Positions 4,603 to 14,989 of a stretch of 35,401 nt of DNA are shown here, piece after piece. This DNA is from Ardenticatenaceae bacterium. Lineage in GTDB: Bacteria; Chloroflexota; Anaerolineae; Ardenticatenales; Ardenticatenaceae. The stretch spans positions 1 through 35,401 of the forward strand of contig WFWG01000356.1 of NCBI GenBank assembly GCA_015491235.1. The letters run 5' to 3'. The first letter of the stretch is position 1. The number at the start of each line of letters is the position of its first letter. The notes under the pieces are model-generated. The model did not search any database. It was not told where the DNA came from and saw nothing but the letters and a program-made list of their open reading frames with translations. Made by a program: the position numbers and the translations under genes.

Positions 4603-7600
4603 CTAATGCCCAACGGTGAAAAAGGGGTCGCCATAGAAGAGATAGCTGGCCCACGTCAGGTCGCTCCACCCCACCTGCTCAAAAAGGTGAGAGCGGGCCC
4701 GGTGCACGGCCACCCCTAACGGCGCTCCGCCGAAGAACTCGCCATAGAAGACGCGCGCAAAAGTTTGGGCCGCTTCGTCCCTGATGTTCCAGAAGGTAGC
4801 CAGCACGTTGCGGCTGCCAGCCGCAATGCTGGCGTCGGCCAGGCCCGTGGCCCAGGTGTGAGCCCGCTCCCAAGTCGTGGACTGGCGTCCGCTCTCGCAG
4901 GCGTTGAGGAAGAGGAGCAACGGGGGAATGCTCAGGCCAGCCAAATTTTGAGCTGTGATGTAGTGTTCCCCATTTCGGTCCAGCAGCAGCCGGCTCAGAG
5001 CCGGCGCCTGTTCGTCATAGAGGGCATGGCCCGCAAAGTGAACGATGTGGTGCCGGGGGAACTCGGCCAGGAGGTCGAGCGCGCTGCCGTCCGGCGACAT
5101 GTGCCAGCGGGTGACTTCCACGTGTGGGAGTTCGGCCACTGCGGCCTCTATTGCTTGAGCCTCCGCTTCGGCCCAGGGCAGGTCGCCCGTCGGGTTGGCC
5201 ACGATCAGCAGGCGCAACTTGCTCTCGCCACGCGCAAGGGGCAGCGCCGTTCCCCGCACGACTTCGGTCACGAGGCGCCGGGCCGTAGGTCGGGCCAGTG
5301 CCAGCGGTTTGTCCGGGATGGGCAACAACTCCCAGGGCACCCCGGCAGTCTCCCTGTCGAGACGCCAGGTGAGCGCCGCATCGTCGGGCAATTCGGCCAG
5401 CATTTCCCGCACAGGGGGCGGCAAAAGGGCATCTCGCAGTGCTGCCAGGCGTTGTTGTGCTTGCTCGGCCAAGGTGCCGGGCTCAGTTGTTTCCTGAGAA
5501 GCGCGGGCCAGGTCGTCCACAGCGCGCAGAAAAGCTCGATACTGGGTCGGGTCACGGGGAACGGTCGTGCGCGGCTCGCCCGCCAGCACAGTAGGCGCCA
5601 TGTACGTGAAGTCCACCGTTCGGCCATCAGGCGACACCAGCACGCTCAGGTATGCCCCCTGCAGCGGCGAAGGAGAACTCTTGGCCGGTGAAAGCAACAC
5701 TTCTGGGCGTTCGAGGCGCCGACGCAGGCGTGTTAGGCGCTGGGCCTGCCCGGTTTCGGACGATAGGGGCTGCCCAACCCGAATTTCGAGGGGAAGGGGG
5801 CTTTCTGTGGACAAGAGGGCTGGCAGTCCGCGCTGCTCGTCGGCCAGGCGGGCAAACTTGGCCTCATCCCACTCCACCAGCCAAACGTCTGTCAAGGACG
5901 AGGCTTCCTGGGCGGCCAACTCGTCCAACAGGCCACGCATGAAGGCGTGGGCCGCTTCTTCGACTTCCAGCCCACCCCCGCCAGCGCCGTGCACGATGCT
6001 GGCCAGCGTCTGAAGGTGCAGAAGGGAGGCGGCCTGGGCCACCACCCGCCCAACCGTTTGAATCCGCTCCAGGCGAGACTTCCGTTCCACGCCAAACTCC
6101 TCAGCCGTGCCCAACCCCACGACGACGACCAAGTCGGACGGCAGCAGGTCACGAGTGGGCACGAAGAAGAGCCGGCCAGCGTGCCCCGTCAGGCTCCCTT
6201 GGGCAATGAGGGCGCTCAAGACACCTCCAAGCTTCTGGTCCACGAAGCTGGCAGCCCCGCCTACGGCTACCCCTTCCACGTGGTTGACCACAATGGCCTC
6301 CGTGCCCACATCGCCAATGGAGCCGCGCGCCAGCGTCAAGCGGAGGGGGGCCTGCCGGGGACGCACGACCGGTTCAACCGGTTCAGCAACGGCCAGGCCG
6401 CGCTCTTCCCCACCAGCTTGACCGTTGCAGCCGGGCCAGCGGGGCAACGGCTGACCAGGCGGGTAGCTGGCACGGGCGACGGCCGCGAAGTGAGTGAGCA
6501 ACTCGTCCCAGCGGGTGTCGCGAGCGAAGTCCAGCGGGCGGTAAAGTTCCGCCAGGGCGCGCGTTTGGGGCACGTCAGGGTCGAGGCCCGCTCGGGGGAA
6601 GTAGATGGAGAGGCCGTGGGCCCGAATGGGCATGTTCGTCTGGGCCCGCACAGCCTCGTTGGCGAGCACCACCGGGCCGCCGGGCTGGGCCAGTTCGGCC
6701 ACGCGGCGGGCGGCCTCGGAGATGGCCGCAGGCACATCCGGCTGCTCTGCGAGCCGGTTGACGAAGTCCACCAGGTCCAGGTAGTCGCGACTGCGATTGC
6801 GGAAGCGTTCCGCCTGCTCCCGGGCAAGGTCAACAGCCTCGAAAACCGGACGGTGGTGCAGGTTGCAGAGCAGCAAGTGGGCCAGGCGATCTACGGCCTG
6901 TACCAACGCACTCAGCCCCGCTGTGCTAATAGCCGACTGTGTAATTTCATCGTGCAGGCTGAACCGCCCCTGGTCGTGAGCTTCTCGGAAGCGGCGCACG
7001 GTGGCCCGGGCCACCGCCTCGACACCGTGGCCGGGAAGCGCTTGCACGAAGTGCTGGTAATCCCAGCCAGCGGCGGGCTCCTCGGCCTGGGAGCCGATCA
7101 CCACGCGGGCCGCCAGCCGCACCTGATAGGCCACCTCCACCATGCTCATCAAACAGGCGTCGAAGCCCAACAGGTCGAAGCGCTCCAGGCCAGCCTCCTG
7201 CAAGCCCTGGCGGAGCGCCGTAGCCAACTCCTGGTTGTCCACGAAGTCCATAGAGGTGTCGTCGTAGAGGATACCCCGCATGGTCTCGGGCTGGATGGTG
7301 GCTGTTTCGGAGAGGCGGCGCAGGGTGGCGGCGAAGAGGGCACGGTTGAAGCGGGTAGCCGCTACCGTGCTGCGCACGCGAGGGTCAGCAGCGGTAACGC
7401 GCCTGGCCGTCTCGCGCAGGGAGGCGTAAATGTCCGTGTCGTCCCACCCGTTTCCGTGGTTCCAAATGACGAGCGCGTACTTCTGGGCCGGATACGTGCG
7501 CACACCCCACCGGATGAAGTCTACCAGGTTTTGCGGGTCGCCAGTGTTGACTTCGGCCAGCACCTCGCCCACCTGGTCTTCCTCCAGCGCGCCGTCCGCC

Positions 7601-7800
7601 GTCAGGTGATAGCGCAAGGTGCCGCGATCGCCCACTGTGTCAAACTGGGCCACGACATGTAACGTAGCCCGCTTCTCTGGGGACAGACCTTGCAGGCCGC
7701 GCTTGACCTCTTCCAGATCCTGAAAACCAGCTCCCTCCAGGGAATTGTCGCCAGCCATGTAAAGCAGCACTGTCCACTCGGCTTGGGGGACTGGGGTCAT
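4603..7800 (-). CDS. Clostripain (C11) - M17N-like - CHAT double-protease protein
   Basis: This 1065-residue protein has no signal peptide or membrane segment, so it is probably cytosolic. Residues 8-440 are a clostripain-type C11 peptidase: WTVLLYMAGDNSLE at the start, His115 in VIWNHGNGWD and Cys216 in LGFDACLMS form the expected catalytic pair. Residues about 485-660 resemble the N-terminal macro-like domain of M17 leucine aminopeptidases (TEAIVVNHVEGV, DQKLGGVLSALI, VVVVGLGTAEEF) without an M17 catalytic domain. Residues about 815-1065 are a CHAT (caspase-HetF-associated) domain with the lead-in GVPWELLPIP, His925 in VHFAGHALYDE and Cys968 in FLNACESGR. Both dyads are intact. The ATG follows a GGGAGGAG site. 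It is the third gene after an LLM oxidoreductase and an M29 aminopeptidase on this strand, 83 bases behind the latter. The domain reading comes from motifs; the partner, trigger and substrates are unknown. Confidence 0.9.
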   Translation of the reverse strand: MTPVPQAEWTVLLYMAGDNSLEGAGFQDLEEVKRGLQGLSPEKRATLHVVAQFDTVGDRGTLRYHLTADGALEEDQVGEVLAEVNTGDPQNLVDFIRWGVRTYPAQKYALVIWNHGNGWDDTDIYASLRETARRVTAADPRVRSTVAATRFNRALFAATLRRLSETATIQPETMRGILYDDTSMDFVDNQELATALRQGLQEAGLERFDLLGFDACLMSMVEVAYQVRLAARVVIGSQAEEPAAGWDYQHFVQALPGHGVEAVARATVRRFREAHDQGRFSLHDEITQSAISTAGLSALVQAVDRLAHLLLCNLHHRPVFEAVDLAREQAERFRNRSRDYLDLVDFVNRLAEQPDVPAAISEAARRVAELAQPGGPVVLANEAVRAQTNMPIRAHGLSIYFPRAGLDPDVPQTRALAELYRPLDFARDTRWDELLTHFAAVARASYPPGQPLPRWPGCNGQAGGEERGLAVAEPVEPVVRPRQAPLRLTLARGSIGDVGTEAIVVNHVEGVAVGGAASFVDQKLGGVLSALIAQGSLTGHAGRLFFVPTRDLLPSDLVVVVGLGTAEEFGVERKSRLERIQTVGRVVAQAASLLHLQTLASIVHGAGGGGLEVEEAAHAFMRGLLDELAAQEASSLTDVWLVEWDEAKFARLADEQRGLPALLSTESPLPLEIRVGQPLSSETGQAQRLTRLRRRLERPEVLLSPAKSSPSPLQGAYLSVLVSPDGRTVDFTYMAPTVLAGEPRTTVPRDPTQYRAFLRAVDDLARASQETTEPGTLAEQAQQRLAALRDALLPPPVREMLAELPDDAALTWRLDRETAGVPWELLPIPDKPLALARPTARRLVTEVVRGTALPLARGESKLRLLIVANPTGDLPWAEAEAQAIEAAVAELPHVEVTRWHMSPDGSALDLLAEFPRHHIVHFAGHALYDEQAPALSRLLLDRNGEHYITAQNLAGLSIPPLLLFLNACESGRQSTTWERAHTWATGLADASIAAGSRNVLATFWNIRDEAAQTFARVFYGEFFGGAPLGVAVHRARSHLFEQVGWSDLTWASYLFYGDPFFTVGH

Positions 7801-7883: not shown

Positions 7884-9017
7884 TCACGCCTCCTGCTTGG
7901 CCACCTCGCGTTCCCACAGCACGAACTGACCGTCCTTCTGGAACAACTCCCCGTCCACGTAGACTTCGCCACCCTGACGCAGGTCACACACCAGGTCCCA
8001 GTGAATTGCCGAGATGTTTTGTCCACCCGTCTCGGGGTAACTGCGCCCCAACGCCATGTGAATCGTGCCGCCGATCTTCTCGTCAAAGAGGGTATTGCGC
8101 ATGAAGCGCTGGATGTTGTAGTTGGTGCCGAAGGCGAACTCGCCCACGTACCGTGCCCCAGCGTCCGTGTCCAACATTTTGAGCAGGAACTCCTGGTTGT
8201 GGGAGGCTTCGGCCTTCACGACGCGACCGTTCTCGAACCAGAGGCGCACGTCGCGCACCTCGCGCCCGTTGTGGACAGCCGGGAAGGTGAAGGTGATGTA
8301 ACCGTTCACCTGATCTTCCACAGGGCCGGTGAACACTTCACCGCCGGGGAAGTTTTTCTCGCCCCTGTCGTTGATCCATGTGCGACCGTTGACACCCACG
8401 CGCAGGTCGGTGTCCGGCCCTTTAATGTGCACCTCCCGCGCCTCCTGAAGCGCCTCGATGAGCACCTCCTGGCGTTGGGCTTGCTCTTGCCAGCGGCCAA
8501 TGGGATTCTCTTCGTTCAGGAAGCAGGCCTCGAAAATGAACTCAGCTAACTCGACCAGTCCCATCTCCGCGTCCTGTGCGTAGGCAGGTGTGGGGAAGAG
8601 CGTCAGGCTCCACAACAGGTCGCCGGAGGCAGCACGGTTCATGAAGAGCTCGGAGAGGGGCTGGCGGGCTCGCTGGAGGCGCACCGTCTTCTGGGGGTCC
8701 ACGTTTGTCAGTGAACGCGTGTTATCTTCGCTCAGGATGTGAAACACCACGTCCATGTGCTGGTATTCCAGGTGAGCCAGCTCGGGCAACCGGTCGAGCA
8801 CGCTGTCGGGCGCGTAGCGGTAGAAATACTCGTTCATGAGAGGGGGCGAGAGGCGCACGTGGGGGATCGCCTCCCGCTCCAGCACCGCGCGAGCCAGTTC
8901 CAACACGAGGGGCTCGGCCAGCGTGGTTCCCCGTATGACGACTTCGTGTCCGGGTTGAACCGGCGCGCTGTATTCCACGAGCACGTCAGCCCACTTTCGG
9001 ATTCTTGCGTCGTACAT
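7884..9017 (-). CDS. M29-family aminopeptidase (thermophilic aminopeptidase / AmpS-like)
   Basis: This 377-residue metallo-aminopeptidase of the M29 family removes N-terminal residues from peptides using two metal ions. The length is slightly below the usual 400-415. The family core is present: NFPGGEVFTGP (Glu227), VGEFAFGTN (Glu293), DEKIGGTIHMALG (His320) and SAIHWDLV (His339, Asp341), which supply the likely metal ligands; the 66-residue gap between the two glutamates fits the family. The N-terminal half (VLVEYSAPVQPGHEVVIRG) is also typical. It starts 15 bases after the LLM oxidoreductase stop, so the two are almost certainly cotranscribed, with the C11/CHAT gene following. There is no export signal. 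Confidence 0.92.
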   Translation of the reverse strand: MYDARIRKWADVLVEYSAPVQPGHEVVIRGTTLAEPLVLELARAVLEREAIPHVRLSPPLMNEYFYRYAPDSVLDRLPELAHLEYQHMDVVFHILSEDNTRSLTNVDPQKTVRLQRARQPLSELFMNRAASGDLLWSLTLFPTPAYAQDAEMGLVELAEFIFEACFLNEENPIGRWQEQAQRQEVLIEALQEAREVHIKGPDTDLRVGVNGRTWINDRGEKNFPGGEVFTGPVEDQVNGYITFTFPAVHNGREVRDVRLWFENGRVVKAEASHNQEFLLKMLDTDAGARYVGEFAFGTNYNIQRFMRNTLFDEKIGGTIHMALGRSYPETGGQNISAIHWDLVCDLRQGGEVYVDGELFQKDGQFVLWEREVAKQEA

Positions 9018-12469: not shown

Positions 12470-14989
12470 TTATGCAAGCCGCCTGTCCTCATCAGCCAGC
12501 CGACGCAGGCGCTCCAGGTAGCGGACATCTCGCTCGAAATCCGGGTGGTCCACTTCGCGCTCGTACGCCACGGTGATTTCCATCAATTCGACAGCGCGCT
12601 GGTACTCGCCAATTTGCTCATAGACCAACCCAAGATTCCAGGCCGCCGCCGCTTCAGCTCGCCGGTCACCGATGTCGCGGGCCAGTTCCAGCGCCTGCCG
12701 ATAATGCTGAATGGCCCGTTGCAGGCGTCCCATTGCCCGATGTACCACACCGAGACTTCCCAACACAAACCCTTCACTGCTGCGATCGCCCACTTCCCGG
12801 GCCAACTCGAGCGCTTTCTCGTAAAGTTCAATGGCCTGTTGCCATTCACCTTGCCTGAAATAGGCCGTCGCCAGGTTGGCGAGCAATCGAGGAAACGCCC
12901 GCCGGTCGCCAAGCGTTCGGGCGATTTTCAGAGCCTGCTTGTAATGGGCGATGGCCTCCGTTATCCGACCCAGCCGATAGTATGCGTTGCCCAGGTTGCC
13001 AAGGTCTGCGCTTTCCCCGCGTCGGTTGCCAATCTCACGGTCAATGCGCAACGCTTTTTCGTAAAAGGTTATAGCCTGGGAGATGTCTCCCTCGTCGAGA
13101 GAGATCGTTCCGAGGTTGGCGAGACAGACGCTCTCGGCCAGCCGGTTGCCCAGGTCACGCACCACTTTGAGCGCGTGGCGATAATAGTCGGCCGCTGTGT
13201 GAATGTCACCGCGACGGTAGAGGGTGTTGGCCAGGCCAATCAGGTCGGCCGCTTCTCCTTCCTGATTGCCCGTTTCACGGTCAATTCGCAGAGCCTCTTC
13301 ATAACACCGCACGGCCTGGTCGAGTTCGCCTGCCCGATGATAAGCGCTCCCCAGGCTGCGCAGGTGGACGCTTTCGTTTTTTCGGTTCCCCAACCTGCGG
13401 GCTGCTCCCAAGCCCGCCAGAAGGAAGGGGATTCGCTCCCGGGAAGTCAGGCGTAAGTCCAACAATTGGCCAACGGCTTGAGGAAACTCGTCCAGAAATT
13501 GAAGCGCTGCCGGACTTTCCTGGGCGCTCATCCACTCCCAGGCTGCCTGCAGGTTGGGCCAAATCGCCTCGAAGCGCTCCAGGGCTTGAAGTGCGCTTTC
13601 GTCTCCCTCGGCGTAAAGTGTCTCTGCTTCTTTTGCCAGGCTCAAGAAGTAATAAGCGAAGCGCACTTGGGCGCGCGTCCACGCGTAGGGATCCATTCCG
13701 CTGGAAAACACAAAGGCGTACCGTCGCAGGGCAACGTGTATTTCATACCTGTCCTGTTCCGGTACCTGCTCCACCAAACGGCGCTGAACCAATCGTTTGA
13801 GGAAAAATTCGGCTTCCAGGCGATGATGACCGGTGAGCATGGTGACCTCTTCAACGCTAAACGAGTTGGTAAACAACGTCAACAGGTGCCAGAACTGCAC
13901 GAGTTCGGCATCCTCATCGGCAAGCCGTTGCAGACAAATGCTCACGGCGGCAGCCAAGCTCGATTCGCCCTTCAAGTTGCCGTACCTGACCAGCTCGGCC
14001 TTCAATGTGTGCAACAGTTCTTCAAGTGACAATTCGGGCTGGGCGGCTAACTGAGCAGCCATCAGGCGGAGCGGCAGGGGCTGACACTGGCATACTTCGG
14101 CCAGGCGGCGAAGTCCCTCGGCGTGTTTCGGCCCAATCAAATCCAGGCGCCCGCCCTCCCTGAGCAGGCGTCGCAGAAGTGCTGTGGCGTCGGGAAGGGC
14201 AAGGGGAGTCACCGCGTAGAAGGCTGTGTCGGGAAGGGCCAACTGGTGGCGGGCCGTTACCAGCACAATGTAGCCCTCAGGCGGAGGCAACAGCGGGGCC
14301 ACCTGCCCGGCGTGAGCTGCGCGATCCAAAACCAGAATGCCCTGCCACGTATTGCCGCGAAGCCAGTGATGATACAAGGCCTGAAGTTCGGACAGGGTCT
14401 CCGGCAGGCGCTCTTGGGGACGGAGCGCCCGGAGAATGGAGCGCAACACCGCTTCAGGGACAATAGGACATCCATGAGGCTGTAGATCAACGAAAAGGTG
14501 AACATCGGGGTATTGGGCTCTCAACCGATGAGCGACCGCCAAAGCCAGTTCGGTCTTCCCCATACTCTCGCCGTACAGCAACACGCTTCTGTGACCACTC
14601 CGAAAAAGGGCACAAATCGCTTCGATTTCTTGAGTGCGTCCGGTGAAATCACTCATTGGCGGACGCACATTGGTGTATACCGGAACCACTCGCGAGTCGT
14701 CCTCCCGCTCTTTCGGCGAAACGATCACCATGCCCGCCGGGTCAAGTGGTTCGAGGTGGGGATCCACGTCGGAAAAGAGGTCGTTCAGGGTAATGGCCAT
14801 GCCTTCCGCGTGAAAGAAGGCCAACAAACGCTCGAGCGTATCGAGGCGCACCTGTGTTGTCTGGTTGGCAGCAATGCGTTCGATGGTGTGGCGATGGAGG
14901 CCAGTCCGCCGGGCAATCTCCGACCAAGAGTACTCACGCCCGGTAAGCTCCTCGAGTTGCCGTTTGAGCCGTGCTAAATTAAAACGCAT
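12470..14989 (-). CDS. HTH - STAND NTPase - TPR regulator with degenerate P-loop
   Basis: This 839-residue protein begins with a Cro/C1-type helix-turn-helix (about 20-58: WSEIARRTGLHRHTIERIA). Residues about 110-420 form a NB-ARC/STAND-like ATPase region, introduced by DFTGRTQEIEAI. The Walker A is YGESMGKT (139-146): the first glycine of GxxxxGKT is replaced by Tyr139, while Gly144, Lys145 and Thr146 remain. The Walker B is ILVLDRA, with Asp222 followed by Arg instead of a second acid; TARHQ (245-249) fits the sensor arginine. Residues about 541-820 are seven TPR units with an exact 40-residue period. Such proteins usually switch on ligand or protein binding at the TPRs and then oligomerise. 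Target genes are unknown. Ribosome binding site GAGGGG precedes the ATG. Confidence 0.85.
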   Translation of the reverse strand: MRFNLARLKRQLEELTGREYSWSEIARRTGLHRHTIERIAANQTTQVRLDTLERLLAFFHAEGMAITLNDLFSDVDPHLEPLDPAGMVIVSPKEREDDSRVVPVYTNVRPPMSDFTGRTQEIEAICALFRSGHRSVLLYGESMGKTELALAVAHRLRAQYPDVHLFVDLQPHGCPIVPEAVLRSILRALRPQERLPETLSELQALYHHWLRGNTWQGILVLDRAAHAGQVAPLLPPPEGYIVLVTARHQLALPDTAFYAVTPLALPDATALLRRLLREGGRLDLIGPKHAEGLRRLAEVCQCQPLPLRLMAAQLAAQPELSLEELLHTLKAELVRYGNLKGESSLAAAVSICLQRLADEDAELVQFWHLLTLFTNSFSVEEVTMLTGHHRLEAEFFLKRLVQRRLVEQVPEQDRYEIHVALRRYAFVFSSGMDPYAWTRAQVRFAYYFLSLAKEAETLYAEGDESALQALERFEAIWPNLQAAWEWMSAQESPAALQFLDEFPQAVGQLLDLRLTSRERIPFLLAGLGAARRLGNRKNESVHLRSLGSAYHRAGELDQAVRCYEEALRIDRETGNQEGEAADLIGLANTLYRRGDIHTAADYYRHALKVVRDLGNRLAESVCLANLGTISLDEGDISQAITFYEKALRIDREIGNRRGESADLGNLGNAYYRLGRITEAIAHYKQALKIARTLGDRRAFPRLLANLATAYFRQGEWQQAIELYEKALELAREVGDRSSEGFVLGSLGVVHRAMGRLQRAIQHYRQALELARDIGDRRAEAAAAWNLGLVYEQIGEYQRAVELMEITVAYEREVDHPDFERDVRYLERLRRLADEDRRLA

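What the first reader, a model, noticed from the sequence alone, without database searches (positions are those of the whole stretch)
4603..7800. One protein with two intact caspase-fold proteases (C11 and CHAT) around an M17N-like domain
Residues 8-440 form a clostripain-type C11 domain (His115, Cys216) and residues about 815-1065 a CHAT domain (His925, Cys968); both dyads are intact. Between them sits a domain resembling the N-terminal macro-like domain of M17 aminopeptidases, without its catalytic half. CHAT proteases are known as effectors in TPR-CHAT/Craspase and other bacterial defence modules, and C11 peptidases self-activate by cleavage; a fusion of both in one cytosolic chain suggests a built-in activation cascade. 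The M17N-like part could sense a nucleotide or ADP-ribose-type ligand. It is in an operon with an M29 aminopeptidase.
Basis: partly seen in the sequence, partly recalled or inferred. Interest (0 to 1): 0.8.

Follow-up and report, generated by a model that had tools for sequence, protein, structure and literature searches.

The report
Single-chain C11–CHAT double caspase-like protease
This bacterium fuses into one protein two different caspase-like proteases that its relatives usually encode as neighbouring genes, with an aminopeptidase-derived macro-like domain between them, which looks like a self-contained protein-cutting relay of the kind used in regulated cell death or defence, although the trigger and target are unknown.

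Summary
The minus-strand ORF 4603-7800 (1065 aa) carries an intact C11 peptidase (H115/C216, S1 D214), an M17-aminopeptidase N-domain without its catalytic half, and an intact CHAT protease (H925/C968), by Pfam and fold search. It is not a one-off: two further family genomes (Ardenticatenaceae) carry the same fusion, always 39-83 bp downstream of an M29 aminopeptidase gene. About 800 other Chloroflexota genomes lack it.

The main new result: the fusion is the single-chain form of a common two-gene cassette. In 16 of 24 unselected non-fused class loci with the same C11 clade, a CHAT gene lies beside it on the same strand, C11 first in 15. All dyads are intact. The CHAT partner's extra module varies (an unnamed N-domain, TPR, Big_5-EAD7, or M17N here). 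Every fused or main-cassette C11 has Arg exactly where PmC11 self-cleaves (R129), followed by a ~45-residue insertion.

Best reading: a sensor-coupled CHAT initiator activating a zymogen C11 executor, in cis. SAVED-CHAT/PCaspase is the precedent. The order of action, ligand and substrate are inferred. Neighbourhoods are mostly housekeeping, so a defence role is plausible but not shown.

The parts
4603..7800 (-). C11-M17N-CHAT fusion gene, 1065 aa
   Evidence: full-length homologues at 47-51% identity in G004 and G005/L006
7807..7814 (-). Ribosome-binding site GGGAGGAG, 6 nt before the ATG
   Evidence: sequence printed
6490..7779 (-). C11 (clostripain) domain, residues 8-437
   Evidence: Pfam PF03415 2.9e-47; PDB 6mzo zymogen C11, sequence 5e-20, fold 2e-18
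7456..7458 (-). C11 catalytic His115
   Evidence: conserved in all C11 rows
7153..7155 (-). C11 catalytic Cys216; Asp214 of the DAC motif (7159-7161) matches the S1 Asp177 of PmC11
   Evidence: PMC4850288
7414..7416 (-). Arg129, predicted activation (self-cleavage) site, aligned with PmC11 Lys147
   Evidence: chain A of 4yec aligns to residue 125, four residues before its C-terminal end; Arg in 3/3 fused and 13/13 main-cassette C11s
7276..7413 (-). About 45-residue insertion at the C11 activation loop (residues 130-175), absent from solved C11s
   Evidence: 75 residues here against 21 in 6mzo between the aligned blocks; pLDDT under 50 for 139-184; F[RK]x[TS] in 20 of 33 rows against a shuffle mean of 1.2, Arg replaced in the fused forms
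6343..6474 (-). Low-confidence linker between C11 and M17N (residues 443-486)
   Evidence: variable in homologues; pLDDT about 30 in its middle
5821..6342 (-). M17-aminopeptidase N-terminal (macro-like) domain, residues 487-660, without the M17 catalytic half
   Evidence: PF02789 2.9e-11; about 34-40% identity to genuine M17 N-domains; fold hits to macro domains and to leucine aminopeptidase 8pzm
5452..5820 (-). Connector region, residues 661-783, conserved among the fused homologues
4627..5451 (-). CHAT protease domain, residues 784-1058
   Evidence: PF12770 1.3e-32; fold hit to SAVED-CHAT 8tl0, 1.3e-7, then separases
5026..5028 (-). CHAT catalytic His925
   Evidence: conserved in all CHAT partners
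4897..4899 (-). CHAT catalytic Cys968 (NACESG)
   Evidence: conserved in all CHAT partners
7884..9017 (-). M29 aminopeptidase gene directly upstream, likely co-transcribed
   Evidence: PF02073 7e-91; adjacent to the fusion in all three fusion genomes, present without it in congeners G001 and G002

Best explanation
The protein is a single-chain, two-step cysteine-protease module. The CHAT domain acts as a regulated initiator, held off and triggered through the adjoining M17N-like/connector region. The C11 domain is a zymogen executor that becomes active when its activation loop is cut, at or near Arg129, and then cleaves proteins after Arg or Lys. It is the fused version of a two-gene C11+CHAT cassette common in this bacterial class, in which the extra domain on the CHAT subunit is the exchangeable sensor or adaptor. 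Shown here: domains, intact dyads, recurrent pairing, single origin of the fusion, conserved Arg at the PmC11 cleavage position, conserved M29 linkage. Inferred: CHAT-first order, cutting in cis, Arg129 as the cleaved bond, M17N as sensor/adaptor, a regulated proteolysis or cell-death outcome.
For: C11, M17N and CHAT by Pfam and fold. 16 of 24 unselected non-fused class loci of this C11 clade have a CHAT gene on the same strand, C11 first in 15 of them, often with overlapping or very short gaps; two further pairs (L039, L040) were picked because CHAT was visible. Both dyads intact in every pair. The fused clade has one origin (100/99) and groups weakly (82/82) with other C11-CHAT pairs and C11 fusions. 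The CHAT partner's accessory module varies: an unnamed N-domain in 13, TPR in L071 and L063, Big_5-EAD7 in L069, M17N here. Arg at the PmC11 Lys147 position in 3/3 fused and 13/13 main-cassette C11s, plus a lineage insertion there; PmC11 needs that cut for full activity and accepts Arg/Lys at P1 (PMC4850288). Precedent for a CHAT-started proteolytic cascade: SAVED-CHAT (PMC11229360); its target PCaspase is recalled, the primary paper was not readable here. Allosteric CHAT activation: Csx29 (PMC10028731).
Against: No direct evidence that CHAT cuts C11 or the reverse; C11 peptidases can self-activate without help. The activation-loop insertion also occurs in C11s with no CHAT neighbour, and Arg at that position in some of them, so neither is specific to pairing. 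No ligand, substrate, inhibitor or downstream effector gene was identified. The M17N and CHAT models have low to moderate confidence.
Confidence: 0.5

Rival explanations
1. Housekeeping proteolysis: C11 and CHAT cut proteins into fragments that the co-transcribed M29 aminopeptidase trims, with M17N as an aminopeptidase-type assembly or docking domain. No death or defence role.
For: M29 directly precedes the fusion in two genera; M17N is closest to ordinary aminopeptidases; the genome also has a complete M17 enzyme; neighbours of the paired loci are mostly housekeeping, such as MutS.
Against: M29 sits in the same place without the fusion in G001 and G002, so it does not need it. No M29 family was among the families listed for the neighbours of the cassettes (top 25 only). 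Single-cut CHAT proteases are regulators rather than degraders in the studied case Csx29 (PMC10028731).
Confidence: 0.22
2. C11 self-activates and is the upstream protease; it then cuts the linker to release or activate CHAT, which makes a specific cut in an unknown target.
For: C11 family members self-activate (PMC4850288); Arg129 suits C11's own basic specificity given Asp214; linker 443-486 is Arg-containing and flexible.
Against: Accessory (sensor-like) domains are on the CHAT subunit in the split forms, which suggests CHAT receives the signal.
Confidence: 0.2
3. Anti-phage abortive-infection system using the M17N part as an ADP-ribose/nucleotide sensor or as a decoy of a host aminopeptidase. 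This concerns the biological role and is compatible with the cascade.
For: One CHAT partner carries EAD7, an effector-associated domain of predicted conflict systems (PMC7159879, PMC8195603); fold hits of M17N to ADP-ribose-bound macro domains; dynamin-like LeoA/LeoBC-type genes beside two pairs; conflict systems are described as acquiring modules, typically inactive, from other cellular subsystems (PMC7159879).
Against: No PADLOC system matches the window protein. In the aggregate scan most neighbours had no defence hit and several hits are likely housekeeping. The adenine-contacting Asp of macro domains (GDI, from memory) is GSI here. No mobile-element context seen.
Confidence: 0.3

Closest known systems
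SAVED-CHAT / PCaspase cascade (type III-B CRISPR, Haliangium ochraceum)
   Same: A CHAT protease coupled to a sensing domain starts a proteolytic cascade (PMC11229360); SAVED-CHAT 8tl0 is the closest solved fold to this CHAT.
   Different: No SAVED domain or CRISPR genes in this window; the second protease is C11; both are in one chain. That the cascade target is PCaspase is recalled, not read.
Csx29 (TPR-CHAT, Craspase)
   Same: CHAT protease with intact His/Cys and Glu after the cysteine, controlled by attached domains (PMC10028731).
   Different: No TPR in the window protein (one paired partner, L071, is TPR-CHAT); no Cas7-11; C11 attached.
PmC11 / clostripain (MEROPS C11)
   Same: Dyad, S1 Asp, basic residue at the activation position.
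   Different: PmC11 is solved as a stand-alone peptidase; this one has no signal peptide by eye, has a ~45-residue insertion at the activation loop, and is fused to M17N and CHAT.
M17 leucine aminopeptidase N-domain
   Same: About 34-40% identity to Chloroflexota M17 N-domains.
   Different: Catalytic metal-binding half missing.
EACC1/EACC2 caspase systems (Kaur et al. 2020, 2021)
   Same: Constant caspase-superfamily domain with exchangeable attached modules (PMC7159879, PMC8195603).
   Different: No EACC domain detected; two different proteases form the constant core.

Membership tests
Peptidase family C11 | C11 profile match above cut-off | tested here: met
   162 bits against a cut-off of 25.8
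Peptidase family C11 | His/Cys dyad and S1 Asp two residues before Cys | tested here: met
   H115, D214, C216
Peptidase family C11 | Activation by cleavage at a basic residue in the activation loop | tested here: inconclusive
   Arg129 aligns with PmC11 Lys147; cleavage itself not testable
CHAT protease | CHAT profile and intact His/Cys dyad (HFAGH, NACESG) | tested here: met
   114 bits against 24; H925, C968
CHAT protease | Proteolytic activity | not testable with these tools
   needs assay
M17 aminopeptidase | Catalytic domain with the NTDAEGR metal site | tested here: not met
   no PF00883 match; similarity ends after the N-domain
Macro domain (ADP-ribose binding) | Macro-like fold | tested here: met
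   Foldseek to macroH2A at 2e-4 to 5e-4, but on low-confidence models
Macro domain (ADP-ribose binding) | ADP-ribose binding | not testable with these tools
   adenine Asp position appears to be Ser (motif from memory)
SAVED-CHAT/PCaspase system | SAVED domain | tested here: not met
   no SAVED match in Pfam or PADLOC for the window protein
Known anti-phage system in PADLOC-DB 2.0 | Specific system profile match | tested here: not met
   only BovA at 2.3e-4 over part of the CHAT domain

The most novel reading that the evidence does not exclude
A previously undescribed family of stand-alone bacterial proteolytic cascades, with C11 executor and CHAT initiator as constant parts and an exchangeable sensor module (unnamed N-domain, TPR, EAD7, M17N macro-like). 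In one family of Chloroflexota the whole initiator-executor relay has been condensed into a single polypeptide, fired in cis.
Probability: 0.35. Interest if true: 0.8.

Novelty: new variant of a known kind. Interest (0 to 1): 0.62.

Why it matters
Initiator-executor caspase relays are known in animals and, in bacteria, from CHAT-started CRISPR-linked cascades. A pair of two caspase-fold families without visible CRISPR genes, found beside each other across many Chloroflexota and fused in one lineage, would mean such relays arose more widely. The fused protein offers one purified chain in which initiation, activation-loop cutting and execution can be separated by two point mutants.

Tried and rejected
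Homology of the partner CHAT's N-domain to M17N or to the connector: hhalign probability 1.4 or less, rejected. M17N without catalytic half as a wider family: the longer suspicious frames (L080-L082) are full M17 enzymes. A first impression, from a greedy ORF list, that M29 is not conserved beside the fusion was wrong (corrected). The idea that the activation-loop insertion is specific to CHAT-paired C11s: it is also in unpaired ones. The N-terminal amphipathic helix of split C11s as a general docking helix: hydrophobic moment significant in only four of the tested proteins. Defence-island test: equivocal, mostly housekeeping neighbours. A separate model of residues 477-1065 was worse than the full-length one. 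Literature searches for C11-CHAT pairs found nothing, but only open-access papers are held.

Full report
The observation. ORF 4603-7800 lies on the minus strand and encodes 1065 aa from an ATG preceded by a good ribosome-binding site. Pfam finds C11 (2.9e-47), M17_N (2.9e-11) and CHAT (1.3e-32), each above its curated cut-off. The catalytic residues are H115/C216 and H925/C968, with D214 at the position of the PmC11 S1 aspartate (PMC4850288). AlphaFold with nine sequences gives mean pLDDT 65.7: much of the C11 core above 90, most of CHAT about 50-85, M17N poorer. Foldseek places the three parts on zymogen C11 6mzo, SAVED-CHAT 8tl0 (then separases) and macro domains. The dyad geometry itself could not be measured.

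Distribution of the fusion. Full-length homologues occur in two other genomes of the same family, one of them Ardenticatena sp. WFOS01000064, at 47-51% identity. The other family genomes, including both congeners, lack them, as do the rest of the 396 class and 400 phylum genomes searched (the two sets overlap partly). In all three fusion genomes an M29 aminopeptidase gene ends 39-83 bp upstream on the same strand. In congeners G001 and G002 the M29 / luciferase-type monooxygenase / HTH order is kept, but convergent genes follow M29 instead of the fusion. The M29 link is therefore real and conserved, but M29 does not depend on the fusion.

The two-gene cassette. Searching the class with the whole protein at E <= 1e-40 returned 24 non-fused matches, all to the C11 part. 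In 16 of them a CHAT gene lies on the same strand next to it (one, L069, with a 380-aa ORF between), with C11 first in 15. This was not selected for: the hits were ranked by their C11 alone. One of the eight negatives (L065) is cut by its contig end. Two further pairs (L039, L040) were included because CHAT was already visible, and are not counted in that ratio. Even if each genome had 40 CHAT genes among 4,000, chance adjacency would be about 2% per locus (my estimate). Every CHAT partner and every C11 of the clade keeps its dyad, whereas the distant C11 relatives L010 and L012 have Ser for Cys. The fused C11s have one origin (100/99) and group, weakly, with L007 (unknown 455 aa fused before C11), L008 (CHAT gene first) and L009 (metallophosphatase-C11 beside a weak CHAT); the 13 main-cassette C11s form one supported group.

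Modularity. The CHAT partner's attached module changes: a conserved unnamed N-domain of about 340-530 aa (DUF7363 in part) in 13 loci, TPR in L071 and L063, Big_5 plus EAD7 in L069, M17N here. The unnamed domain is not related to M17N. This pattern, two constant proteases and one variable module, is the main reason to read the variable part as sensor or adaptor and CHAT as the receiving protease. It remains an inference.

Activation site. The alignment to PmC11 chain A, whose C-terminus is the Lys147 self-cleavage end, runs to window residue 125 four residues before that end, placing Lys147 on Arg129 (PMC4850288). That column is Arg in all 3 fused and all 13 main-cassette C11s, and mixed (R, A, Q, S, E) in unpaired ones. 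Directly after it lies an insertion of about 45 residues, unresolved in the model, with a hydrophobic-Phe-Arg motif in most relatives (F[RK]x[TS] in 20 of 33 rows; shuffle mean 1.2, maximum 7); the fused forms keep the hydrophobic-Phe part but have Ala or Thr instead of Arg. The insertion is a trait of the lineage, not of pairing.

Mechanism. I take a CHAT-initiated, C11-executed relay as most likely (0.5). The precedents are SAVED-CHAT (cascade described in PMC11229360; PCaspase as its target recalled from the original paper, not held here), allosteric control of Csx29 (PMC10028731) and loop cleavage of PmC11. The reverse order, a housekeeping peptide-degradation role with M29, and an anti-phage role with M17N as ligand sensor or decoy are the rivals; they partly overlap, so their confidences do not sum to one. 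For defence: one EAD7 partner, dynamin-like LeoA/LeoBC-type genes beside two pairs, and the general style of conflict systems (PMC7159879, PMC8195603). Against: no known defence profile fits the window protein and most neighbours are ordinary genes such as mutS.

Novelty. Each part is a known family. No paper found here describes C11-CHAT pairs or this fusion, within the limits of an open-access library. I rate it a new variant of a known kind, CHAT-linked proteolytic cascades, with moderate to high interest.

Noticed in passing
L069:1661-5903: C11 gene, a 380-aa gene of no known family, then CHAT-Big_5-EAD7: a direct link of this C11 clade to an effector-associated domain of predicted bacterial conflict systems.
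   Followed up: partly
L009:8252-13589: Verrucomicrobiota locus: metallophosphatase-C11 fusion followed by a weak-CHAT protein whose C-terminal part matches NCBIfam 'anti-phage protein ProA' (1e-52).
   Followed up: no
L007:8636-11353: C11 fused C-terminally to a 455-aa region with no Pfam match in a related family.
   Followed up: no
L067, L068, L070, L073 N-termini of the C11 genes: C11s of the split cassette often begin with a short helix (significantly amphipathic in these four) and a Pro-rich linker, missing in the fused form; possible docking or membrane helix.
   Followed up: partly
L040:7237-9015 and L075:1712-5270: Dynamin-like GTPase genes (LeoA/LeoBC profiles) beside C11-CHAT pairs in family f33.
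   Followed up: partly
L062, L064, L066: C11s without CHAT in family f37 follow a PHP-domain gene of 353-359 aa.
   Followed up: no
L037:2343-6287: MutS with an intein and LAGLIDADG domain near a C11-CHAT pair; MutS lies near several pairs.
   Followed up: no
window 12470-14989: Minus-strand 839-aa protein with a Cro/C1-type HTH and many TPRs, including a weak TPR-S match.
   Followed up: no
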